Part shown: piece by piece, positions 10,382-23,643 of the stretch
How the letters are laid out: each line of letters opens with the position of its first letter
Position numbering within the stretch: the stretch's first letter is position 1
Assembly (NCBI RefSeq): GCF_004022485.1
Contig: NZ_CP034951.1
Coordinates: forward strand, 3,038,001-3,102,000
Direction: 5' to 3'
Source: Aequorivita sp. H23M31
GTDB taxonomy: Bacteria; Bacteroidota; Bacteroidia; Flavobacteriales; Flavobacteriaceae
Length of the DNA stretch: 64,000 bases
The notes under the pieces: model-generated
Told to the model about the DNA's origin: nothing
What the model saw: the letters and a program-made list of their open reading frames with translations, nothing else
The model's database searches: none
Made by a program: the position numbers and the translations under genes

Positions 10382-11869
10382 TTATTGTTTTATAATCCTA
10401 AAAGTTTTCGATCCTTCTTTAGCAGTGCTTACTTTTACGAAATAGACTCCTGCGGAAGCATTTATTTCTTGGGATATCGCTTTTGTTGAAGTATATTTTT
10501 CTGTTGATACAAGTTGACCTAGAATATTGTAAACTGCTATGCTAACATCTGTGTATTCTTTCCCAAGATCAATCTCGAAATTGCGCTCAGTTGGGTTTGG
10601 GTAAAGGGAAATACTCGAAAATGTGTTTTCAGTTATTTCTAAATTTCCATCATATCGAAAAACCCGTAGTTGCCCTGCGCTTTGGCCATTGTTGTTATTT
10701 GTTATAGATCCTGTGCTTACCGTATTGCCTGATTCATTTAGATCCAAGCCACGGCCGCTATCATCTCCTGTGCTCTGTCCAAAAATAGTTTGTCCCAGTT
10801 GTACCCAATCCCCATCGGTGTATTTAAAAACTCGAGCACTACCATGACTTCCGCTCCCTTGGGGTCCTTTTAAACCTCTAAAGGCGATTATATTTCCCGC
10901 ATTGTTCATGGCAACATAGGAACCAATTTTATCATAATCCCACGTTCCATCTATATTAGAGCCCTTTTGAACCCAGTCTGATCCATTCCAAGAAAACATT
11001 CTTACTCTTCCTATTTTATCACCATTCTGACTAACGTATTGGCTTTCACTCGTAATAATTGTAGAGCCATCTGCGCTTATATCTACAGATGAACCGGAAT
11101 TGCCATTGGTTTGCTCTCCTGGAATATTAACTCCTTTTTGGATCCATTCTGTTCCATTGTATTTATAAATTGAGGTTACGCCATTTCCGTTTTTTCCAGC
11201 ATCCGCATGTGGCGATCCAGCTACAAAAGTATTTCCATCCGCGCTTAATTTTACCGAAAAACCAAATTGATCACCCGGCGCACCGCCATTTATGTTCGAG
11301 CCCAATTTGATCCAAGAACTGCCATCCCAGCCAAAAACACGTACCTGTCCAGTTGTGGATCCCACACTCATAGATCCGATTGCAACTCTACTGCCATCAG
11401 CACTAATACCGATTGCGCCTCCACTTTGATCGTGAGGACCCTCGCTTGGGATTGTAGCACCTTGTTTTATCCAATCGCTACCATCAAAGTAATATACACG
11501 AACATGACCGGAATTACTTCCGCTATCACCATTAAAGGGTGCTCCAATTGCCAGAGTATTGCCATCGGCACTTAGGGCAACACGACTACTGTTGTCTTCT
11601 GCTCCCTCTCCATCAATATCACTTCCTTTTTGTGTCCAATTTGATCCGTTAAGAGCAAATACCCGAACATGGCCGGCCCTATAGCCTCCATCGCTGTTGT
11701 ATAGCGCTCCTACTGCCACGGTATTTCCATCTGCACTTAGGGAAGAATGGGAGCCACAAAAATCACCCGCGGCTTCCCCATTTATGTCATTGCCCAACTG
11801 TATCCAGTTTTGGGCAGAAACAGTTAAACAGAAGAGGCTCATTATTGATAAAAGTAAAAATTGCTTCAT
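10382..11869 (-). CDS. Secreted repeat protein with T9SS type A sorting domain
   Basis: This 495-residue protein begins with a signal peptide (MKQFLLLSIMSLFCLTVSAQ). About seven degenerate repeats of roughly 55 residues follow, each reading like SADGNTVAVGAPxNxxxGxxxGHVRVFxxDGSxWxQKGxxIxGE. This resembles FG-GAP or integrin-type propeller blades. The last 75 residues are a T9SS sorting domain: SLYPNPTERNFEIDL, then VYNILGQLVSTE, INASAGVYFVKV and a basic end (TFRIIKQ). The protein is therefore probably exported by the Por machinery and attached to or released from the cell surface. A copy of the ECF-type motif lies 42-69 bases upstream of its start, linking it to the sigma factor at 16787-17362. 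A decayed paralogue fragment lies upstream at 12084-12300. Confidence 0.9.
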   Translation of the reverse strand: MKQFLLLSIMSLFCLTVSAQNWIQLGNDINGEAAGDFCGSHSSLSADGNTVAVGALYNSDGGYRAGHVRVFALNGSNWTQKGSDIDGEGAEDNSSRVALSADGNTLAIGAPFNGDSGSNSGHVRVYYFDGSDWIKQGATIPSEGPHDQSGGAIGISADGSRVAIGSMSVGSTTGQVRVFGWDGSSWIKLGSNINGGAPGDQFGFSVKLSADGNTFVAGSPHADAGKNGNGVTSIYKYNGTEWIQKGVNIPGEQTNGNSGSSVDISADGSTIITSESQYVSQNGDKIGRVRMFSWNGSDWVQKGSNIDGTWDYDKIGSYVAMNNAGNIIAFRGLKGPQGSGSHGSARVFKYTDGDWVQLGQTIFGQSTGDDSGRGLDLNESGNTVSTGSITNNNNGQSAGQLRVFRYDGNLEITENTFSSISLYPNPTERNFEIDLGKEYTDVSIAVYNILGQLVSTEKYTSTKAISQEINASAGVYFVKVSTAKEGSKTFRIIKQ

Positions 11870-11910: not shown

Positions 11911-11938
11911 CTATCGCAATAAATGAAAAAGGTCATCA
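11911..11938 (-). promoter_or_regulatory. Predicted ECF sigma promoter (copy a), T9SS repeat protein
   Basis: On the minus strand TGATGACC (11938-11931) is followed by TTTTT and, after exactly 14 bases, CGATAG (11916-11911). It differs from the other three copies at the third position of the -10-like box. The ATG is at 11869, predicting a leader of about 35 nt. Confidence 0.7.
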
Positions 11939-12020
11939 AAAGGAGTTGGAATATTTTTTTCCGAACAAAACGGATGCCTATTTATTATTGACCATAAAAA
12001 ATGGAATGCCTAGTTTTCAA

Positions 12021-12050
12021 TAAATAAAAAATGCCCCGTTCCTGGGGCAT
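12021..12050 (-). terminator. Rho-independent terminator downstream of T9SS remnant
   Basis: A perfect ATGCCCC/GGGGCAT stem with a 6-base loop (12031-12050) is followed on the minus strand by TTTTTTATTTA. It lies about 35 bases after the stop codon of the broken T9SS domain. Confidence 0.75.
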
Positions 12051-12083
12051 TCTGGCTATTCTAGATCTTAAAGACTATTAAAA

Positions 12084-12300
12084 TCATAGTTTTATAATCT
12101 TTAAGGTTTTTGATAATTTCTTATCAATATTCACTTTTACAAAATAAATTCCTGCGTAAGCATTTAATCCTTTGGATATATTTTTTGACCGAAGCATATT
12201 TTTCAGAAGAGATCAGTTTTCCGAACATATTGTAGATATGAACAAAGTGCAGACTGAAATAGGTCGTCAGAAACTCAAATCGAGAATTTTAAATTAAAGG
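12084..12300 (-). pseudogene. Remnant of a T9SS C-terminal sorting domain (frameshifted)
   Basis: Read on the minus strand, the end of this stretch encodes NISKGLNAYAGIYFVKV then a lysine-rich tail ending IIKL and a TGA stop (12084-12086). The upstream part encodes FVHIYNMFGKLISSEKYASVK in a different frame. Together they match the last 60 or so residues of the intact T9SS protein at 10382-11869 (VYNILGQLVSTEKYTSTK, then INASAGVYFVKV). The frame breaks near 12180-12190. Nothing upstream joins to a start codon. I read this as the 3' remnant of a deleted paralogue; its terminator survives at 12021-12050. Confidence 0.75.
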
Positions 12301-12354
12301 AGGAGATCAAGGAAAATAGATAAGAGTGAAATTTTTGGGAGAACAGGCAACTAA

Positions 12355-12603
12355 ATGAAAAAACCCACAAGAAACGCATAATGTTAAATTGCGGTTTCCT
12401 GCGGGTAGGCTCACAAGAGTTGAAAGAATTATTATCTCTATTTTAGAAAAAAACAAATTCCTTCCAGATGGTATTTATCCTCCTCAAAACAAACACTGAT
12501 CTCACTTGTGATTTTCACTTTTACTCGTCGTTAAAAAAACTTATATAATCCTGAGTTTTATATATCCTAACTGTAAGCACGGACATCCTTTTGATGGTTT
12601 CTG
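12355..12603 (-). ncRNA. Putative short transcript (small RNA or micropeptide gene) from ECF-type promoter
   Basis: A predicted ECF promoter (copy b, 12610-12636) points into this region, and a hairpin with a U-run closes it at 12357-12406, giving a predicted transcript of about 250 nt with no long gene. Two tiny frames are present. One is ATG 12586 to 12521 (21 codons, MSVLTVRIYKTQDYISFFND and a final E), preceded by AAAAGG. The other is GTG 12518 to 12438 (26 codons, containing SVCFEEDKYHLEGICFF). It could be a regulatory RNA, a micropeptide gene, or the 5' remnant of the deleted T9SS paralogue whose 3' end lies at 12084-12300. Confidence 0.4.
12357..12406 (-). terminator. Rho-independent terminator of short transcript
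   Basis: The minus-strand arms ACCCGCAGGAAACCGC and GCGTTTCTTGTGGGT pair along 14-15 positions with one bulge and wobble pairs, with a 13-base loop. A run of six T follows (12363-12358). Confidence 0.7.
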
Positions 12604-12609
12604 CTTGTC

Positions 12610-12636
12610 TAACGATACTGTTGCAAAAGGTCATCA
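12610..12636 (-). promoter_or_regulatory. Predicted ECF sigma promoter (copy b), short transcript
   Basis: On the minus strand TGATGACC (12636-12629) is followed by TTTT and, after exactly 14 bases, CGTTA (12614-12610). It fits the consensus of the copies at 17464-17490 and 23458-23484 perfectly, but no long gene follows. Confidence 0.75.
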
Positions 12637-12804
12637 CTTTTTAAAAAAATATGGTGGGGAGCTAACTAATTACAGTCGATAAAATTATGAATTGTGGTTT
12701 TTAACAAATTGGTCTTAAAACCTAGCCAACAAAAGGTAATACCAAATTATGGAATAACTTTTAAGAATGAACCCTATGGTTATGGGCTATTCTATAAGCA
12801 CTCT

Positions 12805-15800
12805 TTAAATTCTCCGTTTTTGATAAAAATAAACAAATATTAATGAAATCAACCCCAATCCCAGAATCCACCACCAAATGGGGTTAGTATTATTTTGCAA
12901 ATGGAGCGGACTTGTATCCCCAACCAACACCAGTCCTGCCCAATATTGCGGTGCGGCTCCTCGTCCCTCCACTGTAGATAGGTATTTAAATTTGGCTTTT
13001 TTGAGTGCCTCATCTTTTGGGAGCCCATCGGAAAGATAATCATAAAAATATCCAACTATTTTGCTGCTGGAAACTTCGTCTATGTTCCATAAACTAGTCA
13101 GGATGCTTTCACTGCCCGCATAATTAAAGGCATGCGCTAAGCTAATCGCGCCCTCCCCCGCTTGGTAGGTTGGTTTGCCAGTTTCGCAAGCGGTCAATAT
13201 TGCGAGGTTTGAGGAAAGGTCTATATTGTAAACTTCATAAACATATAAAGAGTTGTCATCATAAGTTTCTCTATCCTTTGACTTTTTTGCAAAGAGTAGT
13301 CGGCTAAGTTCAGGTGTAATGTTATTGGATTCAGCATGGGTGCCAATATGGATTATCTTATGGTCCTTGGCCTTATTTACGAAGAGAGTTTTACTGGCAT
13401 TTTCATTCATAAAATATTCTCCATCAAACGTTTTCGCGTACTGTTTTATCAAATTTTCACTGAAAGGTTGCGGCAGTAGGGTTAAATACATTTTGTCCAA
13501 ATTCACGGAATCTTGAAGACCCAATCGATAATTCTGTTTCATTTTTTTGTTGAAACCAGGAGCAAAGCCTACATAATTTTCCGAATAATCGATAATCTTT
13601 TTTCTGTCTTTATACAGTAAAAGACTGAAGTTATAGGAAATGTCATATTTTGCCAATAAACTGTTGGTTTCAAATTCCTTAAAATTCTTTATCGGTTTTG
13701 GTGTAAGCATTTCAAAGCTAAGGTTGAATAATTCCCTATCTGGAACTATAATTATTTTCCTGGTTTTAATATAGGGCTCGATGGGTTGCCACAGTTCATT
13801 ATAAAGATTAAATAGCAGCGGACTCTTCTTTTCTACGGAAAAATCCTCCACGTTAAGTTGCTGGACATAGTTTTTAACATTGCTGCTGCTAAGTAAAACA
13901 ATATTTTTCTCGGTATGGGAAACTATATAGGCGTATAACTGATCTTCAATAAAAAAATAACGGACGATGGTTGTATTTTCGGGTATTTTTTGCTGTAGAT
14001 TTTGAATAGGTTTTTCTACGGTTCCATAGCGCATTTTATAATATTCCGGATAATCTTTTTGTAGGGAACCTAAAAAGTTTTCCCACTCCTCAGATGCGTC
14101 TATATAGGCATCAATCCCTCTTTCGGTATCTCCGATAGTTGTGGCAATACTATTTTTTAAATGGGTTTCCTTCTCCAAGACCCGTTTGGGAACATTTTTA
14201 AATGCTATATTTTCCCGGAGACTTAGGCGAGAACGTATTCTGCTGTAAATGGCCGATTCATGAAGCGAAATTACTTGATCTATATAATGAACGTCTTTCG
14301 TAGTTTCATAGAGTTCCAACCTCAACTTTTTTGCGAGATTAAAAAGTTCCTCATTGTCATTTATCAGTAAGGTAACATCCTCATGGGTCGTCACTACTTT
14401 CTTGCGTTGATCCAAGATGGAAATGGCTTGATCTATTTCCGAGAGGTATTGTTTTAAAATTTTTGGAGATTTGTTTTCTGAAAGATTGTATTCTGAATTG
14501 ATTTTGATCAATATAGCTGGGGGTTTTCTATATTGAACTAGGATGGAATCCAAACCGCTCATTTTCCTTCCATCTGCCATCAGATTGAAATTAATAGCCT
14601 CGTTACTATACTTCAGAGCATTTTTATAATCCTTTAGTTCAAAATATACTTTAGCAATATTTTGAATGTGATAAAATTCCTGAAGTGTATTTCTAAAGCT
14701 TGATGCTCTAATGTGATTATAAGCTTCAAAAGCCGTTGCTATTGCCTTTTGGTCCTCCCCAATCTTCACATAAAATTGTGATAACATAATTAAATGATCT
14801 AAAAAGTTTTGCGAAAAATTACCATTGGATGAATTTCTATAAACTTGGTCTCCTTTTTCATAAAATTTTCTGGCCAACTCCATATTACCAGTTCGTTCAT
14901 ATATTGTTCCCTTTACAGAATACAGCGCTGCCTTCCAGTAACTATCCTCATCCGGTCTCTGTTTATAAAGTTCCAAGGCCAAATCAGCATGTTTTGTCGC
15001 ATCCTCATAGTCTTGGTTTATAGTTTTGGCCTGTGCCAATATAATGTGGGAAATTATAATGGGCATATCATTTTCCGGATACATCTTTTGTTTTTGTGCA
15101 TACGAATATTCCATGATCTCCTCGCTTCTCTTGTATTCTCCCAAAGTATTATGGTACGATGCCAGGTTATCCAGAATGCTATAAATAAAATTCCGAGCTT
15201 GTCTAATATAAAATTCGTCTGTAGTTTTTTCAATAAATTCCTGAAGATCTTCGATGGCTTCATACGAAATTGTAATAGCTTCCTTGTTTCTTCCCAAGGC
15301 ATTCAAAAGAACAGACATATTCAATTTTATAAGACTCGGTCTGAACAATTTGTTTTTTAAATCCGTAGTGTCCGTTTTTTTAAGAATTTCCAGAGCCTCC
15401 TGAAAATAAACTTGGGCGCTGTCCAATTTAGCTTCTTGCCAAAGAAGTCCACCAAGGGAAACGTAAACCTGATTGTAAAAAACATAATCATCATTTCCGC
15501 TCTTCTTTAGGAGAGCCAACGATTTGTTGTAATGCTTTTTTGCAAGAGGATAATTGCCAATTTTAAATTTATAGTATCCCAGACTGTATTGGACGGAGGC
15601 TGCATCCGTGTTTTTAGGATCGGTAATATGAGAGGTAGGTTCCACGGCCTCCAGCATGAGGTCATATGCCTTTATGTGCTGTCCAGCGTTATCGTAGATA
15701 TAGGACATTTGTTTATAAGCCAAGGCAATCAAATGCGGATCTTTGTTTGCCGTGATGTATCCGGTCAATTCCTTGGCCTTGGCGATCGCTTTTTCTGTAT

Positions 15801-16044
15801 TGTTGTCATTAAGTTTGAAGTGCCCCTGAAACCGGATATATTCTATTAAGCTATCATATTGTTTCTCCGCTTTATATAATTCGATATTATCTGAAACAAT
15901 TGTCTTGGCCTTTTTGAGAGAATCTTGGCTAATTAGGTTTCGGATATCGTTTACGGAATAGGCTTTTTCTTGGGAATGGGCAGGAATAATGCTAAGTAGG
16001 CAAATGCTGAAAACCGCACGGACTATTCTTACCCTTATTTTCAT
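12805..16044 (-). CDS. Exported TPR-CHAT protein (CHAT protease-like), C-terminally membrane-anchored
   Basis: This 1079-residue protein begins with a signal peptide (VFSICLLSIIPAHSQ). A long array of tetratricopeptide repeats follows (about residues 40-560, for example YSLGYYKFKIGNYPLAKKHYNKSLALLKK). The C-terminal part is a CHAT domain (about 700-1045) of the caspase/separase-like clan: VPDRELFNLSFEML, then HIGTHAESNN with the putative catalytic His about 903, then ILTACETGK with the putative catalytic Cys about 953, then YAGSESILTSLWNIDE. A single transmembrane helix (about 1055-1074) and a basic tail (QKRRI) end the protein, so TPR and CHAT should face the periplasm. Its ATG overlaps the stop of the putative anti-sigma gene (ATGA, 16041-16044), which implies translational coupling. 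It is a close paralogue of the gene at 18928-22206. Protease activity is inferred from the intact His/Cys pair. Confidence 0.9.
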   Translation of the reverse strand: MKIRVRIVRAVFSICLLSIIPAHSQEKAYSVNDIRNLISQDSLKKAKTIVSDNIELYKAEKQYDSLIEYIRFQGHFKLNDNNTEKAIAKAKELTGYITANKDPHLIALAYKQMSYIYDNAGQHIKAYDLMLEAVEPTSHITDPKNTDAASVQYSLGYYKFKIGNYPLAKKHYNKSLALLKKSGNDDYVFYNQVYVSLGGLLWQEAKLDSAQVYFQEALEILKKTDTTDLKNKLFRPSLIKLNMSVLLNALGRNKEAITISYEAIEDLQEFIEKTTDEFYIRQARNFIYSILDNLASYHNTLGEYKRSEEIMEYSYAQKQKMYPENDMPIIISHIILAQAKTINQDYEDATKHADLALELYKQRPDEDSYWKAALYSVKGTIYERTGNMELARKFYEKGDQVYRNSSNGNFSQNFLDHLIMLSQFYVKIGEDQKAIATAFEAYNHIRASSFRNTLQEFYHIQNIAKVYFELKDYKNALKYSNEAINFNLMADGRKMSGLDSILVQYRKPPAILIKINSEYNLSENKSPKILKQYLSEIDQAISILDQRKKVVTTHEDVTLLINDNEELFNLAKKLRLELYETTKDVHYIDQVISLHESAIYSRIRSRLSLRENIAFKNVPKRVLEKETHLKNSIATTIGDTERGIDAYIDASEEWENFLGSLQKDYPEYYKMRYGTVEKPIQNLQQKIPENTTIVRYFFIEDQLYAYIVSHTEKNIVLLSSSNVKNYVQQLNVEDFSVEKKSPLLFNLYNELWQPIEPYIKTRKIIIVPDRELFNLSFEMLTPKPIKNFKEFETNSLLAKYDISYNFSLLLYKDRKKIIDYSENYVGFAPGFNKKMKQNYRLGLQDSVNLDKMYLTLLPQPFSENLIKQYAKTFDGEYFMNENASKTLFVNKAKDHKIIHIGTHAESNNITPELSRLLFAKKSKDRETYDDNSLYVYEVYNIDLSSNLAILTACETGKPTYQAGEGAISLAHAFNYAGSESILTSLWNIDEVSSSKIVGYFYDYLSDGLPKDEALKKAKFKYLSTVEGRGAAPQYWAGLVLVGDTSPLHLQNNTNPIWWWILGLGLISLIFVYFYQKRRI

Positions 16045-16787
16045 TGGTTCTCTAGCTGCTTGAGAAGTTTATCATTATCTGGTGACGGATTATTCCGAAG
16101 AAGTATTTCCGCCTTCTTAAAATTCCCATCTTTTATTTCTGCCAAGGCGGCATAATAAGCCGCTTCTTGCTCAAACATTCCGCCTTTATAGAGTTCCTGG
16201 TTTCTCAGATATTCTAAAGATTCTACCGTATTACCCAGCGCCAAATTTGCCACCCCCAAAAAATAATTCAGGGTATCGTTATGTGGTTTGGCGGGCAATA
16301 TTGTGTTCCATTTTGCGATGGCTTCTTTATAATTTTCCTGTTTATAGTCCAACATACCTTCGTAGAAGCCATAGTTGCCAATGGTGCTCATTTTAAGAGG
16401 CAATCCAATATCAGGCTTAAAATTTTCGGCAAATATCTTTTCCCCTGGTGTCTTTGTATTAAGCATCCAAAAGATTCCAAATAAGACAATGAGTGTTGCT
16501 GCGACAGAATAAAAGAAAACTGACATTTTCAATCTTTTGATTTTGGGTTTTCTTGTCACTTCCTCATCAACGTCCACCTCCGTTTGGAACTCTTTAATTT
16601 TGGACATTCGAATGCAGTCCTCGATGTCCTCCCGCGTTTCCTTGACGTATTTTATTTTTTCATCCAGGTTGGGTATTTGATCAAGAGATTGTTTAAGATG
16701 GGCAGTTACTTCTCCTGCCTCGTTTTTTTCAAGGTAGGTTTCAATTGCATTCCATTCTTCAAATTCTATTTTCATTGGGGGATTCAT
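16041..16787 (-). CDS. Putative anti-sigma factor with periplasmic TPR region
   Basis: This protein has 248 residues from ATG 16787, which overlaps the sigma factor stop by one base (TAATG). The N-terminal region (about 1-85, acidic and helical, FEEWNAIETYLEKNEAG then EVTAHLKQSLDQIPNLDEKIKYVKE) would be cytoplasmic and could bind the sigma factor. One transmembrane helix follows at about residues 89-108 (FFYSVAATLIVLFGIFWML), preceded by a basic stretch (KPKIKRLK). The periplasmic C-terminal half has TPR-like pairs (FYEGMLDYKQENYKEAIAKWN; LNYFLGVANLALGNTVESLEYL). No zinc-binding anti-sigma motif is visible. The anti-sigma role is inferred from topology and from its position between the sigma factor and the CHAT gene; a scaffold role is possible. 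Confidence 0.75.
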   Translation of the reverse strand: MNPPMKIEFEEWNAIETYLEKNEAGEVTAHLKQSLDQIPNLDEKIKYVKETREDIEDCIRMSKIKEFQTEVDVDEEVTRKPKIKRLKMSVFFYSVAATLIVLFGIFWMLNTKTPGEKIFAENFKPDIGLPLKMSTIGNYGFYEGMLDYKQENYKEAIAKWNTILPAKPHNDTLNYFLGVANLALGNTVESLEYLRNQELYKGGMFEQEAAYYAALAEIKDGNFKKAEILLRNNPSPDNDKLLKQLENQ

Positions 16788-17362
16788 TATCTTTTTTCTT
16801 TTGCAAGGGCAATCTCTCTTAATTTTTGAATGCACCTATATTTTTTGTTTTTTGCCGAGTTTTCTTCCAGTTCTAACTTCTCGGCAATAATTTTTAATGG
16901 CAGTTTATAAAAGTAAAATTGAGTAAGCAGCTCTTTACAAGCGGGACCTAAACTTTCAAACGCAGATAAGGTTATAGACAATTTTCTATCCTTATTTTCC
17001 ATTTCCAAGGGATTGGATTCGTCCACAGCAAGATTTAAATTTTTTGCATCCATAGAAATCGTTCTTTTTCTTGCAACACCTCGAGTCTGATCTATCCATT
17101 TGTTTTTGGCAATCGTAAACAAATACGCTTCAATCTGTGCTCTGTTCTCAGGTTTAAATTTTCTGGAACTCAATTTTTTCCAACATGCAAGGTAAGCCTC
17201 TTGAAAAATGTCCTTACAGTTGTCTAGGGAACCACCATGTTGAAGGATATAACATTTTATTTTAGGGTATTCCGTTTTGTAAAATTCTCGCATAGGAATC
17301 TCCTTATTGGTCAAAAATGCGTCCAATAATGCAAAATGCTCTTGTTTTATTGTGTCTCCCAT
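16787..17362 (-). CDS. ECF-type RNA polymerase sigma factor
   Basis: This protein has 191 residues from ATG 17362 (MGDTIKQEHFALLDAFL). A longer frame starts at GTG 17395 and adds a hydrophobic leader that is unusual for the family. Region 2 is represented by LDNCKDIFQEAYLACWKKL and IEAYLFTIAKNKWIDQTRG; region 4 by SLGPACKELLTQFYFYKLPLKIIAEKLE and the recognition segment NSAKNKKYRCIQKLRE. Regions 1 and 3 are absent, as in ECF factors. It is the first gene of a coupled operon with a putative anti-sigma protein and a TPR-CHAT protein. A copy of TGATGACCTTTT-N10-CGTTA lies at 17464-17490, about 100 bases upstream, which would make it autoregulated. The same motif precedes three other local transcription units. 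Confidence 0.92.
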   Translation of the reverse strand: MGDTIKQEHFALLDAFLTNKEIPMREFYKTEYPKIKCYILQHGGSLDNCKDIFQEAYLACWKKLSSRKFKPENRAQIEAYLFTIAKNKWIDQTRGVARKRTISMDAKNLNLAVDESNPLEMENKDRKLSITLSAFESLGPACKELLTQFYFYKLPLKIIAEKLELEENSAKNKKYRCIQKLREIALAKEKR

Positions 17363-17463
17363 ATAAAGTATTGGGAAATATACAATATTTTTCACATAAA
17401 ATCATGATATACATAAATTGTAATTTTTTAATTTAATTCAAGCATATTGGCTCTTTAACGGTA

Positions 17464-17490
17464 TAACGAATAATAGAAAAAAGGTCATCA
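17464..17490 (-). promoter_or_regulatory. Predicted ECF sigma promoter (copy c), sigma/anti-sigma/CHAT operon
   Basis: On the minus strand TGATGACC (17490-17483) is followed by TTTTTT and, after exactly 14 bases, CGTTA (17468-17464). The sequence fits autoregulation of the sigma gene; the predicted leader to ATG 17362 is about 95 nt. Confidence 0.75.
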
Positions 17491-17783
17491 TGCAACTTAT
17501 TTTTTTAACAAACCTTTGTGGCTCAGGATTTAGAAACTGAAATTTATAATGTGGATTTTAGTAAATTATCCGAAATCGGCTTTAAAATATTTTTAGAAAG
17601 TTTTTTGAGCAGATATACAAGTTTGAATATTTCATTTTTATAGAATATCGAGCGCAGTTACATTGGAATAACATAAATTGATCTAAGAACGCAGACCTTA
17701 TTTTTCCCACATATTCTGGATTGCTTTCAGGGGAAATAGGGAAAGCTTTTCAAAATGGGACAGCTTTCGTCAAAAAAGAAGTT

Positions 17784-17791
17784 TATTTTTG
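17784..17791 (+). promoter_or_regulatory. TAnnTTTG promoter element of mvaD
   Basis: TATTTTTG matches the Bacteroidota housekeeping -7 element and lies 24 bases before the mvaD ATG. The rest of the divergent intergenic region 17363-17815 is A+T-rich and holds the oppositely directed ECF promoter copy c; nothing else is evident. Confidence 0.6.
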
Positions 17792-17815
17792 TTCTGCTTT
17801 TAATTTTATAGATCT

Positions 17816-18931
17816 ATGGAGCTTTTTTCGGGTTCAAATTATCCTAAAAATTTAATTTCAGGAAGGGTTTCCTGGCAATCTCCCAGCAATATTGCCCTGG
17901 TAAAATATTGGGGAAAATATGGGGAGCAATTGCCCATGAATGCTTCAGTTAGCTTCACCTTAAAGAATTGTAATACCCAGACATCTCTTTCGTTCGAGCC
18001 ACGGACCAATATATCTTCTAAAGCTGTTGTAGAAAATTCACTTAAATTCGAATTTGAAGTGTTTCTAGATGGTAAAAGAGAGAAATCCTTTGAGCCTAAA
18101 ATCCAAAATTTCTTTGAAAGGATTGAGGGTTATATCCCCTTTCTGAAGGATTTTAAATTCAAGATCGAAACTTCTAATAGTTTTCCACATAGCAGTGGTA
18201 TTGCTTCTTCAGCAAGCGGAATGAGTGCTTTAGCCCTGTGTTTGGTGAATATGGAGCATAAGTTGCTTTCCTCCGATTCTACAAATTTCAAATTGACTGA
18301 AAAGGAATACGAGAAGGCATCCTTTCTCGCTCGATTGGGGTCAGGGAGTGCTTGTAGAAGTATTGGAGGACCACTTATTGTTTGGGGCGAACATCCCCAG
18401 ATTGATGGTAGCACCAATCTCTACGGAATTAAATATCCTTTCGAAGTTCATGAATGCTTTTTAGATTATAAGGATTGCATCTTATTGGTGGATAAAGGAG
18501 AGAAACAAGTGAGTAGCACCATTGGGCATGATCTTATGCATAATCATCCATTTGCCGAACAACGATTTAAACAGGCAAACGGCAATCTTTCAGAATTGAT
18601 TCCCGTTCTGCGCGATGGGAATATTCAGAAGTTTGTGGAAATCGTAGAAAGTGAAGCCTTATCGCTCCACGCAATGATGCTAACTTCTATGCCGTATTTT
18701 ATTTTGATGAAACCTAATACCTTAGAGATAATCAACAGAATATGGGATTTTCGACGAAATACGGGAAGTAATGCATGTTTCACCTTAGATGCCGGAGCCA
18801 ATGTCCATTTGCTCTATCCCGAAGCTGAAAAAGAAGCCGTTCTCAGTTTTATAAAGAAGGATCTTTCACGATTCTGCAAAAACGGAGAATTTATTTTGGA
18901 TGAGGTAGGCCTTGGCGCTTCTAAAATTTAA
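17816..18931 (+). CDS. mvaD: Diphosphomevalonate decarboxylase
   Basis: This enzyme makes isopentenyl diphosphate from mevalonate 5-diphosphate by ATP-dependent decarboxylation. The 371-residue protein has the GHMP-superfamily layout with family-specific motifs: SPSNIALVKYWGKYGEQLPMN near residue 22, HSSGIASSASGMSALAL (ATP-binding loop, about 123-139), LARLGSGSACRSIGGPLI (about 172-189) and FTLDAGANVHLLYPE near residue 322. Length is typical. The stop overlaps the stop of the convergent TPR-CHAT gene by 4 bases (18928-18931). The mevalonate kinase-like gene and the UbiA prenyltransferase follow 4.7 and 5.8 kb downstream; the lipoprotein/CHAT pair on the other strand lies between. Confidence 0.95.
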   Translation: MELFSGSNYPKNLISGRVSWQSPSNIALVKYWGKYGEQLPMNASVSFTLKNCNTQTSLSFEPRTNISSKAVVENSLKFEFEVFLDGKREKSFEPKIQNFFERIEGYIPFLKDFKFKIETSNSFPHSSGIASSASGMSALALCLVNMEHKLLSSDSTNFKLTEKEYEKASFLARLGSGSACRSIGGPLIVWGEHPQIDGSTNLYGIKYPFEVHECFLDYKDCILLVDKGEKQVSSTIGHDLMHNHPFAEQRFKQANGNLSELIPVLRDGNIQKFVEIVESEALSLHAMMLTSMPYFILMKPNTLEIINRIWDFRRNTGSNACFTLDAGANVHLLYPEAEKEAVLSFIKKDLSRFCKNGEFILDEVGLGASKI

Positions 18932-21900
18932 CTTGAATTTTTTTCTTGAAATTCGGAAGACTTCCGTCTTTTTAAGCCTTGCAAAAGAAGAAAAAGGATC
19001 AGCAATATAACTATTCCAACCGCTCCGTACCACATCCAGGAAATACCGGTATCCAAATCAATAGGAGTGGTGTCGCCGATAAGAACAAGTCCTGCCCAGT
19101 ATTGCGGAGCAGCTGTCCGGCCCCTGGCGGACTTAATGTACTCCAGCTTAGCGTTTCGCAAAGCTTCATCCTTAGGTAGGCCCTTTGCCAGATTTTCATA
19201 AAAACGTCTTACAATCTCGGTGCTCGATACTTCATCTATTTCCCAAAGACTTGTCAAAATACTCTCACTGCCCGCATAATTAAACGCGTGCGCCAATGAA
19301 ATCATTCCTTCTCCCGCTTGGTAGGTGGGTTTCCCCGTTTCACAAGCAGTCAGGATCGCCAAATTGGATGACAAATCTATATTGTAAATTTCATAGGAAT
19401 AAAGTGAGTTGGCATCATAATCCTGTTTGTCATCCGTTCTTTTCGCAAATATTAGCCTACTCAATTCCGGACTTACATTATTGCTTTCCGCGTGGGTGCC
19501 AATGTGGATTATTTTATGTTCCTTGGCTCGGTCTATAAATAAATCTTTGCTGGCGTTTTCATTAATATAGTATTCGCCGTCAAAAATTCGGGAATATTCT
19601 TTTACCAAGTCTTCACTAAAAGGCTGGGGAAGAAGGGTGAGGTAAGTTTTATCCAGATTTACAGAATCTTTGATAGCCATTTTGTAATCCTCTTTCATCT
19701 TTTTCGTAAAGCCTGGAGCAAAGGCAATATATTCTGAGGAAAAGTTGGCTACCTTGTTTTTGTCCTTATAGAGGAGCAAACTAAAGTTGTATGAAATGTT
19801 GTATTTAGCCAATAAACTATTCGTGGCCATTTCCTTAAAATCCTTAATCGGTTCTGGAGTAAGGGTTTCAAAGCTAAGATTGAAAAGCTCTCGATCTGGC
19901 ACGATAACAACATTTTTGGTTTTTACAAAACTTTCTAACGGAAACCAGAGTACTTGATATAGCTTATGGAGTTTTGGACTTATTTCTGAAACGGAAAAAT
20001 TATTTTCTGAGAGATTGCTTATGCCATTTTCTAGCTTCTCCCAATTGAGTTTTATCATTTTTTTTATTGAGGAAGAAACTACAAATGCGTACAATGCGTC
20101 CTCAATAAATATATAGCGAATTACCGTAGTGTTTTCAGGAATTTTTTGCTGCAAGTCGTTAATTGGCTCCTCTATTGTGGCATAGCGCATTTTATAATAT
20201 TTGGGATATTGCTGCTTTAGGGAATCCAGGAAATTATCCCAATTTTCTGAGGCCTCAAAGAACGCGGAAATATCCCCGGTTTCTGAATCGTCGAGAGAGG
20301 AAGCCAATTTTCCTTTTAGCTCGCTTTCCCGTACAACCAATTTTTGGGGAACATGCTGAAAGGCGAGGTTTTCCCGAAGATTTAAACGGGACCGGATGCG
20401 GTTATAAATGCTGGATTCGTGAAGAGATATCAGTTTATCTAGATACTTTTCATCCTGTGTAAGTTGGTAAAGTTCCAATCGTAACTTTTCGGTGAAATCT
20501 AAAAGTTCCTCATTTTCTGCGAGAAGTATTGCAATGTCATCATTATTGTTTACAACTTTTTTCCGGTGGTCCAGAATTGCAATTCCCTTGTTTATTTCTT
20601 CCAAAAGCGACTTTAATAGCTGTGGATTTTTGTTTTCCGAAAGATGGTATTTTGATGCTGCATTGATCAACAATGCTTGTGGTTTCCGGAATTGCCCCAA
20701 AATAGAATCAGTTGGACTAATTTTTACGTCTTTTCGTATATTGCTGAATGCCAGGGCCTCACTACTATACTTTTCCGCTTCTCTGTAATCTTTTAAGATG
20801 TAATGTACCTGGGCCAGATTTATGATATGGTTGAATTCCTGGATGGTGTTTTTAAAATCTCCTGTATGGGTAAAATCATAAGTTTCCCTGGCCAGACTGA
20901 TTGCTTTTTCCCTTAAATTATTCCTTGCAGCAAAAAGAGAATGTTCCAAAAGTTGCTCTAGGAAATCCTTGGTATAATTGGGACCCATAGATTCCCGATA
21001 CACTTGTTCTGCTCTTTCAAAATAAATAGCAGCATTTTCAACATCATCCATAGCTTGATAAATACTCGCTCGGGTACTTAGAGCCGCTGCCTGCCAATAT
21101 AGGTCAGCGCTTGCGCTCGATTTTAAAAGTTCAAGGGCCTCATCGGCATCTGCAGCAGCATCCTCAAAATCACGGGAAGCAGTTTTTGCAGAGGCTAAAT
21201 TTACCAGAGAAATAATGAGATAAGTATTGTTGCTATCGTATAGTTTCTTTTTCTGTTCATAGGAATATTCAAGTAATTCCAAAGACCGCTGATGTTGGCC
21301 TATTGTATTGTAAAAAGAGGCCATATTGTCCATTACCATACATTGGTTTCCCTTTGCTTTAAAGATCCGGGACTCATCGGTTGAGCGGTTTATGTATTCC
21401 TGAAATCCGGCAATGGCTTCTTGTGAAATCGAAATGGCTTCCTGATTTTTTCCCAAGGCATTCCATAATACCGATAAATTCAATTTTACAAGTGCCGGCC
21501 GGTAGTAGCGGTTCATAATATCATTTTCATCTGTTTTTTCCAACACCTTAACCGCTTCCTGAAAATAATATTTGGCACTGTCCAATTTTGACTCTTGCCA
21601 CATCATTCCGCCCAAGGCATTATACACCTGATTGTAGAAAACATAATCGGGCTTTCCCGATTTTTTGAGGAGACGAAGTGCCCTTTGATAGTGATTGTTT
21701 GCCAAGGGGAAATCCCCCAGATGGGCGGCATAATATCCCATTCTATATTGTACACCAGCCAAGTCGGTGCTTTGAGGTTCTGTATTTTTGAGAGCATATG
21801 GAATTGCTGATTCCAGAAGATCGTAGGCTTTTTTTTGTTGGCCCATGTCATCGTAAATCCAGCCTAGTTCGGTTATAGCTTCAACAATGAAATGGGGATG

Positions 21901-22206
21901 GGCATTTTTTTTAATTTCTTCCGTGAGAATTTCTGCCTTTTTCAAGGCCTTCATTTTATCTCCATTATTTAATTTAAAGCTGCCCTCAAATTGGATAAAA
22001 CTATACAGACTATCATACAACTTTTTACTTCTATAATAGGTTAAGGCTTTCTGGGTTTCTGTCCTGGCCCTCGTCAATGAGTCCCCTTCAATAAGATTTT
22101 GGATTTCTTTGACGGATGAAATCCTCTCTTGGGAAATCCCCTTAAAGAAAAAAACAAACGCTATAAATAGAAAGAGGAGGGTATTTTTTCGGTATTTTTT
22201 CCGCAT
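18928..22206 (-). CDS. Exported TPR-CHAT protein, second paralogue
   Basis: This 1092-residue protein has the same architecture as the protein at 12805-16044: signal peptide (LLFLFIAFVFFFKGISQ), TPR array (about 40-560), CHAT domain and one C-terminal transmembrane helix (about 1060-1078) with a basic tail (GLKRRKSSEFQEKNSS). The putative catalytic pair is intact: His about 905 in HIGTHAESNN and Cys about 955 in ILTACETGK. The two proteins are nearly identical around these motifs and diverge in the TPR region, which suggests conserved catalysis but different partners. It lies 100 bp downstream of a lipoprotein gene on the same strand. That gene has an ECF-type promoter (copy d) and this one has no motif copy of its own, so the two are probably co-transcribed. 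Substrate unknown. Confidence 0.9.
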   Translation of the reverse strand: MRKKYRKNTLLFLFIAFVFFFKGISQERISSVKEIQNLIEGDSLTRARTETQKALTYYRSKKLYDSLYSFIQFEGSFKLNNGDKMKALKKAEILTEEIKKNAHPHFIVEAITELGWIYDDMGQQKKAYDLLESAIPYALKNTEPQSTDLAGVQYRMGYYAAHLGDFPLANNHYQRALRLLKKSGKPDYVFYNQVYNALGGMMWQESKLDSAKYYFQEAVKVLEKTDENDIMNRYYRPALVKLNLSVLWNALGKNQEAISISQEAIAGFQEYINRSTDESRIFKAKGNQCMVMDNMASFYNTIGQHQRSLELLEYSYEQKKKLYDSNNTYLIISLVNLASAKTASRDFEDAAADADEALELLKSSASADLYWQAAALSTRASIYQAMDDVENAAIYFERAEQVYRESMGPNYTKDFLEQLLEHSLFAARNNLREKAISLARETYDFTHTGDFKNTIQEFNHIINLAQVHYILKDYREAEKYSSEALAFSNIRKDVKISPTDSILGQFRKPQALLINAASKYHLSENKNPQLLKSLLEEINKGIAILDHRKKVVNNNDDIAILLAENEELLDFTEKLRLELYQLTQDEKYLDKLISLHESSIYNRIRSRLNLRENLAFQHVPQKLVVRESELKGKLASSLDDSETGDISAFFEASENWDNFLDSLKQQYPKYYKMRYATIEEPINDLQQKIPENTTVIRYIFIEDALYAFVVSSSIKKMIKLNWEKLENGISNLSENNFSVSEISPKLHKLYQVLWFPLESFVKTKNVVIVPDRELFNLSFETLTPEPIKDFKEMATNSLLAKYNISYNFSLLLYKDKNKVANFSSEYIAFAPGFTKKMKEDYKMAIKDSVNLDKTYLTLLPQPFSEDLVKEYSRIFDGEYYINENASKDLFIDRAKEHKIIHIGTHAESNNVSPELSRLIFAKRTDDKQDYDANSLYSYEIYNIDLSSNLAILTACETGKPTYQAGEGMISLAHAFNYAGSESILTSLWEIDEVSSTEIVRRFYENLAKGLPKDEALRNAKLEYIKSARGRTAAPQYWAGLVLIGDTTPIDLDTGISWMWYGAVGIVILLILFLLLQGLKRRKSSEFQEKNSS

Positions 22207-22306
22207 AACTTAGAACCACTTAAGAGATAAGATATACCCGGGGATAGCGTGAAGTAAGATACAAATTATTTTTTATGGTTTTTATGCTCAGATAATTTTT
22301 AAATTT

Positions 22307-23434
22307 CTAGTTCTGCTCTTCAAATTCAGTCCAATTTTGATTGTTGACCCATTTATCCTGGTTGGGATTGTAGAGGGAATTATCGCTCATTATATATTCT
22401 CCTTGGTCATTAACCCAATATTGTTTAGCACCTGATTCAACCTTATAAGCTTGACCAGTACTGTGATCGCTAACATTGGTTGTGCCGCGAATGTTGTCTA
22501 TCACTTGGCTGTGACTTCTATCATTGGCAGCTTGTCTGTATTTCCAATCGGTCATATTTTGGTCCATTGTCGCCATTCGCGCATTGTGGTTCGCAGTACT
22601 TCTTTCTCCTGCAGCCTTAATGTTGTCCATTCTAATTTGGTGATCTATATTGCTTTGTTGGGCTATTTGCATGTCCTTCTTATTTTGCTTTTGGATCCAT
22701 TGTGGATTTACCTGTTTATTTAAAAGCCCATTTATATATTGTCTTTTCGCTTTTTCATAGGCACCTTCGGAGGATTCTAGAATAGTATAAATAACGCCCC
22801 AATATCCGCCGTAATTATCATAGGATACAAAATGGTGGAGTACTGTAAGAAGCTTGGTGCCATCAGGATCCTGCCATTCCAGACCCATAACGGTAAAGGT
22901 TTTTTGGGAAGGCAGACTTTTGTACTTCTGATCCTCGTACTGTTTGTCCCAAGTTGCCAGTTGGGGAATGGGAAATTTCCCGACGAGCTTTCTGTTTATT
23001 TTATTGCCATATGGGACAAAGGATTCATTTATAACCTGCTCAATAGACTTAGGAAATTGAATGGGAATTCCGCTTTGTTGATACATTTGGTTCGTCTGTT
23101 GGTCATTTGAAAACATATACATAGAAGCCCTCTCATTATAGATCTTAATCCCGTTTGGGCCTAAATAGCTGAACTCTTTATCGTTTTGTTTTTTCCAATT
23201 GGACGGCAATGGAATGCGGGACATTATCATGCCGCTTTGAGGATCTATGTTGTTATAATAGACAATGGTATCTCTTTTTGGTCCCTGTCTATTTTCTTCC
23301 GTTTTATATCCTCGACGATTTTCGCTTAATTGGGCCTCACGGTGATAGTTTGAGTCCTCTTCCAAATTGTTTAAACACGAAATTTGAAAAAAAGAGAAGG
23401 TTACTAAAATTAAAAAAGGAAAAGAATATTTCAT
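22307..23434 (-). CDS. Lipoprotein of unknown function, ECF regulon candidate
   Basis: This 375-residue protein starts with a lipoprotein signal (FPFLILVTFSFFQISC, cysteine at residue 20). An N-terminal charged linker is followed by a globular region (about 60-240) containing WKKQNDKEFSYLGPNGIKIYNERASMYMF and TVMGLEWQDPDGTKLLTVLHHFVSYDNYGGYWGVIYTIL. A Q/N/M-rich helical stretch follows (about 250-320), then a C-terminal segment with KQYWVNDQGEYIMSDNSLYNPN. I do not recognise a family. The ECF-type motif (copy d) lies only 24-50 bases upstream, and the second TPR-CHAT gene follows after 100 bp. This suggests the lipoprotein is a partner or substrate of that CHAT protein on the periplasmic side. 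Confidence 0.8.
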   Translation of the reverse strand: MKYSFPFLILVTFSFFQISCLNNLEEDSNYHREAQLSENRRGYKTEENRQGPKRDTIVYYNNIDPQSGMIMSRIPLPSNWKKQNDKEFSYLGPNGIKIYNERASMYMFSNDQQTNQMYQQSGIPIQFPKSIEQVINESFVPYGNKINRKLVGKFPIPQLATWDKQYEDQKYKSLPSQKTFTVMGLEWQDPDGTKLLTVLHHFVSYDNYGGYWGVIYTILESSEGAYEKAKRQYINGLLNKQVNPQWIQKQNKKDMQIAQQSNIDHQIRMDNIKAAGERSTANHNARMATMDQNMTDWKYRQAANDRSHSQVIDNIRGTTNVSDHSTGQAYKVESGAKQYWVNDQGEYIMSDNSLYNPNQDKWVNNQNWTEFEEQN

Positions 23435-23457
23435 GATTTCTGCATTTTATAATAATA

Positions 23458-23484
23458 TAACGAGAGAGTTGGAAAAGGTCATCA
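23458..23484 (-). promoter_or_regulatory. Predicted ECF sigma promoter (copy d), lipoprotein/CHAT operon
   Basis: On the minus strand TGATGACC (23484-23477) is followed by TTTT and, after exactly 14 bases, CGTTA (23462-23458). The ATG at 23434 would be about 15 nt from a start site placed 7 nt after the -10-like box. Confidence 0.75.
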
Positions 23485-23578
23485 AAACAGGGACGGAATC
23501 ATTGCGCTACAGTATATTGTGAATTTGCGTCTAAATTTTATTGTTCATTAATTTTCAATGACTATTTGTTAAAATGAT

Positions 23579-23586
23579 TATCTTTG
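23579..23586 (+). promoter_or_regulatory. TAnnTTTG promoter element of mevalonate kinase gene
   Basis: TATCTTTG followed by CAG is a perfect match to the Bacteroidota -7 element, 57 bases before the ATG at 23644. It is divergent from ECF promoter copy d. Confidence 0.65.
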
Positions 23587-23643
23587 CAGTGAGATTCGTT
23601 TTAAATTAATAACTATATTTTTAGATTTATTAACCAATAGCTT

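What the first reader, a model, noticed from the sequence alone, without database searches (positions are those of the whole stretch)
11911..23484. Four copies of a two-part ECF-type promoter (TGATGACCTTTT-N10-CGTTA) define a local regulon
The motif occurs on the minus strand at 11911-11938, 12610-12636, 17464-17490 and 23458-23484. All have TGATGACC followed by at least TTTT, and all have exactly 14 bases between TGATGACC and the second box (CGTTA three times, CGATAG once). Every copy lies directly upstream of a transcription unit: the ECF sigma operon itself, a T9SS repeat protein, a lipoprotein/TPR-CHAT pair and a short transcript. A bipartite motif with constant spacing, one copy before the sigma gene itself, is the usual pattern for autoregulated ECF sigma factors. 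Two other TGATGACC strings (about 44545 and 46507) lie inside genes without the T-run or second box, which supports specificity.
Basis: partly seen in the sequence, partly recalled or inferred. Interest (0 to 1): 0.9.

Follow-up and report, generated by a model that had tools for sequence, protein, structure and literature searches.

The report
ECF sigma–caspase-like protease surface regulon
The four repeated DNA signals look like switches of one stress-type sigma factor that controls its own operon and nearby cell-surface genes, and the same switch with its membrane inhibitor and caspase-like protease recurs across many related bacteria.

Summary
Four TGATGACCTTTT-N10-CG[T/A]TA sites lie at the stated places; the 3.68 Mb genome has five exact copies (reversed control 0) and one with a mismatch. 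The ECF promoter reading is strongly supported. All eight sigma orthologues found among 59 relatives have the motif upstream. The form TGATGACATTTT-N10-CGAT occurs in 29 of 42 Flavobacteriaceae genomes with the partner protein and in 4 of 207 without.

Two corrections. The 'short transcript' is a decayed T9SS gene. The sigma operon is a triad: ECF sigma, anti-sigma-like protein with one TM and TPRs, and a membrane-anchored TPR-CHAT (caspase-like) protease; such triads are widespread.

Best model: an autoregulated envelope-signalling sigma factor driving exported surface proteins, a lipoprotein and a second TPR-CHAT. Sigma-promoter pairing is near certain by sequence, untested at the bench. That CHAT cuts the anti-sigma is inference after Craspase. 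Closest prior art in passages seen: Craspase, ECF54. Ten searches listed no report of this membrane version; the ECF classification paper is not held.

The parts
17464..17490 (-). ECF-type promoter of the sigma operon (autoregulatory site)
   Evidence: TGATGACCTTTTTTCTATTATTCGTTA; conserved upstream block in 8 of 8 sigma orthologues; 101 nt from end of box to the ATG
16787..17362 (-). ECF sigma factor (191 aa from ATG 17362; the mechanical ORF starts at GTG 17395)
   Evidence: NCBIfam sigma70-ECF 75 bits, cut-off 42.9; Pfam Sigma70_r2 33 bits, cut-off 24; start chosen by the conserved ATG of orthologues
16041..16787 (-). Anti-sigma-like protein (248 aa from this ATG; exact start uncertain): N-terminal helical domain, one TM (about residue 96), TPR domain
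   Evidence: Start codon overlaps the sigma stop; TM by hydropathy; TPR; profile match 99.4% to partner proteins of other ECF-CHAT loci; two NCBIfam anti-sigma models hit 23 and 22 of 54 family members at E<=0.1
12805..16044 (-). TPR-CHAT caspase-like protein 1: signal peptide (by eye), TPRs, CHAT domain, C-terminal TM
   Evidence: Pfam CHAT 135 bits, cut-off 24; start codon overlaps the anti-sigma stop; TM at 1064 of 1079; His and Cys kept
23458..23484 (-). ECF-type promoter of the lipoprotein-TPR-CHAT 2 unit
   Evidence: TGATGACCTTTTCCAACTCTCTCGTTA, 23 nt before the ATG
22307..23434 (-). Lipoprotein-like protein of unknown function (375 aa; lipoprotein by eye); homologues stand upstream of the sigma gene in other genera, behind the same kind of promoter
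   Evidence: phmmer E 3e-73 to 2e-12 in 9 of 16 extended loci; no Pfam or NCBIfam match at E<=0.1
18928..22206 (-). TPR-CHAT caspase-like protein 2 (signal peptide by eye, C-terminal TM)
   Evidence: Pfam CHAT 149 bits, cut-off 24; TM at 1062 of 1092; His and Cys kept
11912..11938 (-). ECF-type promoter of a T9SS-exported FG-GAP protein
   Evidence: TGATGACCTTTTTCATTTATTGCGATA, 42 nt before the ATG
10382..11869 (-). FG-GAP repeat protein with type A T9SS sorting domain
   Evidence: Pfam Por_Secre_tail and FG-GAP_2; NCBIfam TIGR04183 52.8 bits, cut-off 23
12610..12636 (-). ECF-type promoter left in front of a decayed T9SS cargo gene
   Evidence: TGATGACCTTTTGCAACAGTATCGTTA; no ORF of 60 aa or more within 400 nt behind it
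12090..12243 (-). Frameshifted remnant of a T9SS C-terminal sorting domain
   Evidence: tblastn of neighbouring and related cargo proteins, pieces in two frames, E down to 1e-10

Best explanation
The sites are -35/-10 promoters read by the ECF sigma factor at 16787-17362. The sigma factor drives its own operon (sigma, membrane anti-sigma, TPR-CHAT 1), a lipoprotein-TPR-CHAT 2 unit, a T9SS surface protein next door and two distant exported-looking proteins (one an M23 peptidase with a T9SS sorting domain; the end of the other was not read); one further site is a fossil. In the resting cell the N-terminal domain of the anti-sigma protein would hold the sigma factor at the inner membrane, with its TPR domain in the periplasm. 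The TPR-CHAT protein carries a signal peptide and a C-terminal TM, so its caspase-like domain would face the same compartment. A signal at the cell surface (perhaps relayed by the lipoprotein) would switch CHAT on, it would cut the anti-sigma, and the freed sigma factor would switch on new surface proteins and more of the module. Shown here, by sequence: the sites, their specificity, their link to this sigma factor, the gene triad and its topology signals. Inferred: that the partner is an anti-sigma factor (moderate support), that CHAT cuts it (no direct test), and the signal (unknown). The confidence below is for the promoter-sigma pairing and autoregulation; for the CHAT step it is 0.4.
For: Genome scan: 5 exact sites in 3.68 Mb, reversed control 0, plus one at one mismatch. 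Among 59 genomes (own included) the exact 27-nt pattern is in 8 of 8 with a sigma orthologue of 60% identity or more and in 1 of 51 others; in two of the eight (G014, G023) the exact copy precedes an FHA operon and the sigma promoter has one mismatch. In 299 family genomes TGATGACCTT-N12-CGTTA hits the own genome 5 times and one other genome once; the reversed control hits 5 other genomes once each, so the single foreign hit is chance level. Outside the genus, CGAT follows TGATGAC after exactly 15 bases in 34 of 37 sense-strand pairs over 27 module loci; 4 of the 34 lie inside sigma ORFs, leaving 30 sites in 23 of 27 loci. Family-wide, 29 of 42 genomes with the anti-sigma partner have the exact pattern against 4 of 207 without; 26 of 42 after moving three genomes whose exact hit lies in the sigma ORF. 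The triad is in all 7 named loci, and a TPR-CHAT homologue follows the anti-sigma in 28 of 30 loci. In class Bacteroidia 18 of 20 CHAT proteins with a C-terminal TM lie near an ECF gene against 0 of 7 without; 27 of 29 CHAT genes were read. CHAT His and Cys are kept in the window pair and 11 orthologues. Genes behind the sites look exported.
Against: No transcript start, binding or mutant data. 4 of 27 module loci outside the genus have no site outside the sigma ORF in the stretch read, and 13 of 42 partner-bearing genomes lack the exact pattern (three are Aequorivita, with other variants). Foldseek found no match at E<=0.001, and the 50 listed of 1120 weaker ones cover the TPR half, so the N-terminal fold is not tied to a solved anti-sigma domain. 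The window's own anti-sigma gives only E 0.047 to an anti-sigma model. Contact between CHAT and anti-sigma, and a cleavage site, were not tested. Two TM-bearing CHAT genes (G430:C5, G380:C45) have no ECF gene in the stretch read. In L074 and L076 no second site lies near the module.
Confidence: 0.9

Rival explanations
1. The TPR-CHAT proteins are outputs of the regulon (envelope proteases or a protective or death effector induced under stress), not the switch that frees the sigma factor; the anti-sigma senses the signal through its own TPR domain. (Compatible with the promoter reading.)
For: TPR-CHAT 2 sits behind a regulon promoter in the window, as do other exported-looking proteins; in the two Aequorivita group B loci the same kind of sigma/anti-sigma pair has no CHAT homologue behind it.
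Against: In 28 of 30 loci a CHAT homologue follows the anti-sigma gene, in the window with overlapping stop and start codons. In class Bacteroidia the link to ECF genes holds for CHATs with a C-terminal TM (18 of 20) and not for the others (0 of 7). Group B lies behind a gene that I read by eye as the site-2 protease rseP, a possible alternative protease.
Confidence: 0.35
2. The bipartite motif is the binding site of a conventional transcription factor rather than a sigma promoter.
For: No transcript starts are mapped; the first box is unusually sharp (though its core was part of the search).
Against: Fixed gap to a CG[A/T]T box, orientation towards the gene, location about 20-100 nt before starts in the own genome, and presence that follows the sigma/anti-sigma pair. 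A conserved DNA-binding regulator other than the sigma factor was not searched for systematically.
Confidence: 0.04
3. The sites are read by another ECF sigma factor of the cell, or by several, so the adjacent sigma factor is not their main reader.
For: PMC9723704 (section 15) raises overlapping ECF regulons for Flavobacterium psychrophilum. Aequorivita group B sigma genes have a similar motif with a one-base longer gap.
Against: The window's genome has no group B sigma (one match at E<=1e-10; three weak ECF matches at E 5e-5 to 7e-4), yet has the most exact sites of the 59 genomes. Same-genus genomes with a group B but no group A sigma lack the exact 27-nt A-type pattern; two of them (G002, G003) have it with a longer gap.
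Confidence: 0.06
4. The copies are recent duplications carried along with duplicated surface-protein genes, without function.
For: Cargo genes next to the module resemble each other and one has decayed.
Against: The ten spacer bases differ between copies; boxes and gap are kept across genera while the sequence around them in the eight orthologous upstream regions is not.
Confidence: 0.01

Closest known systems
Type III-E CRISPR (Craspase): TPR-CHAT protease Csx29, sigma inhibitor Csx30, ECF-like CASP-sigma (PMC10028731, passages read)
   Same: Same three kinds of part: a TPR-CHAT protease, a sigma inhibitor, an ECF-type sigma factor; three sigma sites lie within its own locus.
   Different: There the protease works with the RNA-guided Cas7-11. 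Here CHAT has a signal peptide and a TM, the inhibitor spans the membrane, and none of the 8 proteins scanned matched a CRISPR component above its cut-off; the sigma factor scores 34 bits against a cut-off of 100 for the type III-E sigma model.
ECF54 (PMC8999054, two passages read)
   Same: CHAT-domain proteins in the genetic context of an ECF sigma factor; proteolytic control proposed.
   Different: [quoted passage not shown] here an anti-sigma-like gene lies between sigma and CHAT genes.
RseA/DegS/RseP-type regulated proteolysis of a membrane anti-sigma (passages in PMC10028731 and, for class I anti-sigma domains, PMC7406223)
   Same: Membrane anti-sigma next to an autoregulated ECF gene; a protease acting outside the cytoplasm is the proposed trigger.
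   Different: The candidate first protease is caspase-like (CHAT) and encoded in the operon; the far half of the anti-sigma is TPR.
Flavobacterium psychrophilum SM6 promoters (PMC9723704, passages and section 15 part 1)
   Same: ECF-type promoters with a CGT box at -10, one before an ECF/anti-sigma pair, others before T9SS genes and a TPR protein.
   Different: The T9SS genes listed for SM6 are machinery (GldN, PorU); here the targets are T9SS cargo, a lipoprotein and TPR-CHAT. The SM6 logo is a figure and was not seen, so the -35 boxes were not compared.

Membership tests
ECF sigma factor (group 4 sigma-70) | Sigma-70 regions 2 and 4 in a short protein without region 3 | tested here: met
   191 aa; Sigma70_r2 above cut-off, the two region 4 models below theirs (18.1 of 24.1 and 17.8 of 25.7 bits), no region 3 match; sigma70-ECF model above cut-off
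ECF sigma factor (group 4 sigma-70) | Autoregulatory promoter with bipartite -35/-10 and fixed gap | tested here: met
   By sequence only: 8 of 8 orthologues. No transcript data.
ECF sigma factor (group 4 sigma-70) | Cognate anti-sigma encoded next to it | tested here: inconclusive
   TM+TPR partner, homologous to ECF partners elsewhere; sigma binding not tested
Class I anti-sigma factor (ASDI) | Helical N-terminal sigma-binding domain before a TM | tested here: inconclusive
   Model: helices 9-24, 29-36, 41-72, then TM helix 88-110; NF052375 'anti-sigma factor' hits 23 of 54 members at E<=0.1, best 2.6e-6 (whether over its cut-off is not shown); Pfam zf-HC2 hits 3 of 14 members of A3, best 0.01; no fold match to that half among the rows shown
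Craspase / type III-E CRISPR | Cas7-11 (gRAMP) effector with crRNA in the locus | tested here: not met
   None of the 8 proteins scanned matches a Cas effector; other genes of the window and the rest of the genome were not searched for Cas7-11
Craspase / type III-E CRISPR | Type III-E sigma model NF041236 above cut-off | tested here: not met
   34 bits, cut-off 100
ECF54 | CHAT context without an anti-sigma | tested here: not met
   Anti-sigma-like gene lies between sigma and CHAT in the window; the ECF group itself could not be assigned here
CHAT protease (PF12770) | CHAT domain with catalytic His and Cys | tested here: met
   135 and 149 bits against 24; His and Cys kept in both; activity not tested
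T9SS cargo | C-terminal sorting domain (Por_Secre_tail) | tested here: met
   Protein 10382-11869 and the M23 protein behind a distant site; 8 of 8 cargo proteins scanned from related loci. Not seen for the protein behind G000:C1:1102230, whose end was not read

The most novel reading that the evidence does not exclude
A membrane version of Craspase logic without CRISPR: an exported, membrane-anchored caspase-like TPR-CHAT protease is the trigger that cleaves a TPR-bearing membrane anti-sigma factor and frees an ECF sigma factor, which then remodels the cell surface (T9SS proteins, lipoproteins). The module is spread through Flavobacteriaceae and related modules occur in other Bacteroidia, so it would be a major class of envelope signalling that my searches did not find described.
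Probability: 0.4. Interest if true: 0.85.

Novelty: new variant of a known kind. Interest (0 to 1): 0.62.

Why it matters
As far as I recall, few ECF regulons of Bacteroidota have a defined promoter, and the role of the common TPR-CHAT proteins outside CRISPR is open. This module gives a sharp promoter for one ECF group over many genera, a list of surface targets in each genome, and a concrete, testable pairing of a caspase-like protease with an anti-sigma-like protein on the same side of the membrane. A specialist could test it with one deletion strain and one reporter.

Tried and rejected
Rejected: (1) Chance: genome counts and controls exclude it. (2) A 286-aa lipoprotein (L011 1712-2572, plus strand) as target of the site at G000:C1:1102230: my first reading before strands were checked (my note and the domain scans rest on it); the site is on the minus strand and points at a protein of at least 1231 aa, 35 nt away. 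(3) An intact short transcript behind site 2: it is a decayed T9SS gene. (4) Strings inside the sigma ORF in L205, L208, L215 (and a near form in L209) as promoters: read as coding coincidence (the codons spell Asp-Asp...Arg-Leu, by eye); counted apart. (5) Assigning the sigma factor to a numbered ECF group: the classification paper is not held.

Led nowhere: Foldseek for the anti-sigma gave no match at E<=0.001; a solved-structure search of TPR-CHAT 1 gave only a kinesin-light-chain-like protein. A search for CHAT domain, periplasm, sigma factor and protease together found 0 papers. The other nine searches were judged by titles and the starts of abstracts; one search listed 15 of 2,111. I opened passages in five papers. 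A TTGTTACCC-like box before some ECF genes of other genera was not tested.

Selections and limits: of 29 CHAT genes in class Bacteroidia 27 were read; TM calls are a simple hydropathy window (cut 1.8, 1.7), signal peptides are by eye, and 'near' means in the fetched stretch; TPR-CHAT 2 of the window counts as near although one gene lies between. The 16 extended loci were chosen because no exact site lay directly before sigma. In one search I gave 27 of 42 partner-bearing genomes and 20 of 207 without (26 of 27 against 0 of 20; three of the 26 only inside the sigma ORF); one search repeats it on the whole sample. The weight matrix was built from sites of the same genomes. In one search, of 28 TPR-CHAT loci the window's own went to the first group and two with truncated sigma ORFs were dropped, leaving 25.
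Full report
THE OBSERVATION. The four sites exist as described: TGATGACCTTTT, ten bases, CGTTA or CGATA, all on the minus strand. The 8-mer TGATGACC occurs seven times in the window against 1.58 expected; the three other copies (44545, 46506, 60546) have neither the T-run nor the second box. In the whole genome there are five exact sites with the gap left free between 8 and 12, all with 10, and none of the reversed control; one more has a single mismatch. At two mismatches there are 10 strings against 11 controls with up to two, so the regulon in this genome is about six sites.

WHAT LIES BEHIND EACH SITE. 17464-17490: the ECF sigma gene, ATG 101 nt away. 23458-23484: a lipoprotein-like gene, 23 nt, followed by a TPR-CHAT gene. 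11912-11938: an FG-GAP protein with a T9SS sorting domain, 42 nt. G000:C1:2871976: an M23 peptidase with a T9SS sorting domain, 40 nt. G000:C1:1102230: a repeat protein of at least 1231 aa with a signal peptide (by eye), 35 nt; its end was not read. 12610-12636: no intact gene; a frameshifted T9SS sorting-domain remnant lies at about 12090-12243. So five sites serve intact genes, four of them for proteins that look exported and one the sigma gene itself; one site is a relic.

THE SIGMA OPERON. It has three genes with overlapping stop and start codons: sigma (16787-17362), a 248-aa protein with one TM and TPRs (16041-16787), and a TPR-CHAT protein with signal peptide (by eye) and C-terminal TM (12805-16044). 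The middle protein is homologous (99.4%, E 9.6e-22) to 14 proteins taken from beside CHAT and mostly ECF genes in other Bacteroidia. Two NCBIfam anti-sigma models hit 23 and 22 of 54 family members at E<=0.1, best 2.6e-6 and 1.5e-6; the window's own protein gives 0.047. Its predicted structure is confident (mean pLDDT 86.8), but Foldseek gave no match at E<=0.001 and the 50 rows shown cover the TPR half. I call it anti-sigma-like.

CONSERVATION IN THE GENUS. Among 59 genomes, eight (own included) have a sigma orthologue of at least 60% identity. All eight have TGATGACCTT-N12-C[G/A]TTA beginning 118-141 nt before the sigma ATG (128 in the own genome). In the alignment of the eight upstream regions TGATGACCTT and the second box stand out; the other conserved block, TTGTATATTTCC, lies right before the start codon and resembles the -7 box TAnnTTTG of the main sigma factor quoted in PMC9723704. 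The exact 27-nt pattern is found in 8 of 8 of these genomes and 1 of 51 others; in G014 and G023 the exact copy precedes an FHA-phosphatase-kinase operon and the sigma promoter has CATTA. Named carriers are five Aequorivita, Gelidibacter japonicus and the MAG UBA5544. In these the sigma-anti-sigma-CHAT order holds in 7 of 7, a motif lies upstream of sigma in 7 of 7, and another lies about 5 kb further on, after the CHAT gene, in 5 of 7 (not in L074 and L076).

CONSERVATION IN THE FAMILY. A profile of the anti-sigma-like protein hits 42 of 249 Flavobacteriaceae genomes. Of the 30 loci returned, 28 have a TPR-CHAT homologue behind it; the two others are Aequorivita group B. In 27 module loci outside the genus, TGATGAC and CGAT are 15 bases apart in 34 of 37 pairs on the sense strand (6 of 7 on the other); position 8 is A in 33 of the 34, where the window has C. 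Four of the 34 are inside sigma ORFs; without them 23 of 27 loci have a site. In 9 of 16 extended loci a homologue of the window's lipoprotein lies upstream of the sigma gene, and in each of the 9 a site lies at or just before its start. The exact pattern TGATGACATTTT-N10-CGAT is in 29 of 42 genomes with the partner and 4 of 207 without (P 1e-23; 26 of 42 and P 3e-20 with three ORF hits moved to misses). The four hits in genomes without the partner were not looked at. Genomes are related, so these P values overstate independence, although the sample spans 218 genera.

BEYOND THE FAMILY. CHAT domains at E<=1e-15 occur in 51 of 99 Bacteroidota genomes. I read the surroundings of 27 of the 29 CHAT genes of class Bacteroidia. 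CHAT proteins with a C-terminal TM lie near an ECF gene in 18 of 20 cases; those without, in 0 of 7 (counted by hand; Fisher P 4e-5). The two exceptions are G430:C5 (anti-sigma-like gene only) and G380:C45 (neither). In several modules ECF and anti-sigma point one way and lipoprotein or other exported protein and CHAT the other. The active-site His and Cys are kept in both window CHATs and 11 orthologues.

MECHANISM. Sequence supports a closed loop: sigma reads its own promoter and those of surface genes. Topology signals put the CHAT domain and the TPR half of the anti-sigma in the same compartment, so proteolysis of the anti-sigma by CHAT is the simplest reason why the membrane-anchored CHATs, and not the others, sit beside ECF genes. 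Craspase shows that a TPR-CHAT protease can cut a sigma inhibitor (PMC10028731, passages). This step is inference. The alternative, CHAT as an output, remains open because TPR-CHAT 2 is itself behind a regulon promoter. The signal is unknown.

PRIOR ART. Passages seen: Craspase; ECF54 with CHAT in its context and no anti-sigma; SM6 ECF promoters of F. psychrophilum; ASDI classification; an ECF review without a CHAT mention in the passages shown. Ten full-text searches listed no paper whose title or abstract start points to this membrane triad or this promoter; the library lacks most subscription journals and the main ECF classification paper, so this is not proof of novelty.

VERDICT. New variant of a known kind.

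Noticed in passing
L034-L050 (upstream of group B sigma genes): A paralogous ECF sigma (34-41% identity) behind a gene that reads as rseP by eye has a variant with a one-base longer gap (TGATGAC, 16 bases, CGAT) upstream in 14 of 17 loci; the other three differ by a base in TGATGAC.
   Followed up: partly
L101, L102, L104, L106, L107, L108: An operon of an FHA protein, a PP2C-like phosphatase and a Ser/Thr kinase (named by eye) has TGATGAC[A/C]TTTT-N10-CGATA 73-80 nt upstream in six Aequorivita-group genomes.
   Followed up: partly
window 17374-17385 and the same place in 7 orthologues: TTGTATATTTCC is conserved just before the sigma start codon and resembles a housekeeping -7 box, which would give a basal second promoter.
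   Followed up: no
L113, L114, L121, L123, L134: In ECF-CHAT modules of other Bacteroidia some ECF upstream regions show a TTGTTACCC- or GGTTACC-like box (by eye) instead of TGATGAC.
   Followed up: no
L205:7526, L208:7453, L215:3064: Exact TGATGACATTTT-N10-CGAT strings inside the sigma ORF itself; probably coding coincidence, but all three have the exact gap.
   Followed up: partly
window 16787-17362, residue 171: Lys171 in sigma region 4 is Lys in 10 of 10 sigma factors of the C-type motif group and Arg in 23 of 25 of other genera, where A is usual at that motif position; confounded with descent.
   Followed up: partly
   Followed up: yes
window 17816-24582: The module is wedged among mevalonate-pathway-like genes (17816-18931 and 23644-24582, named by eye), as in the five named Aequorivita loci; in Gelidibacter japonicus (L073) and UBA5544 (L077) other genes flank it.
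   Followed up: no
G000:C1:1263927-1264736 (L151): A third CHAT protein of this genome (673 aa, no C-terminal TM) has no ECF gene in the 12.5 kb read.
   Followed up: no
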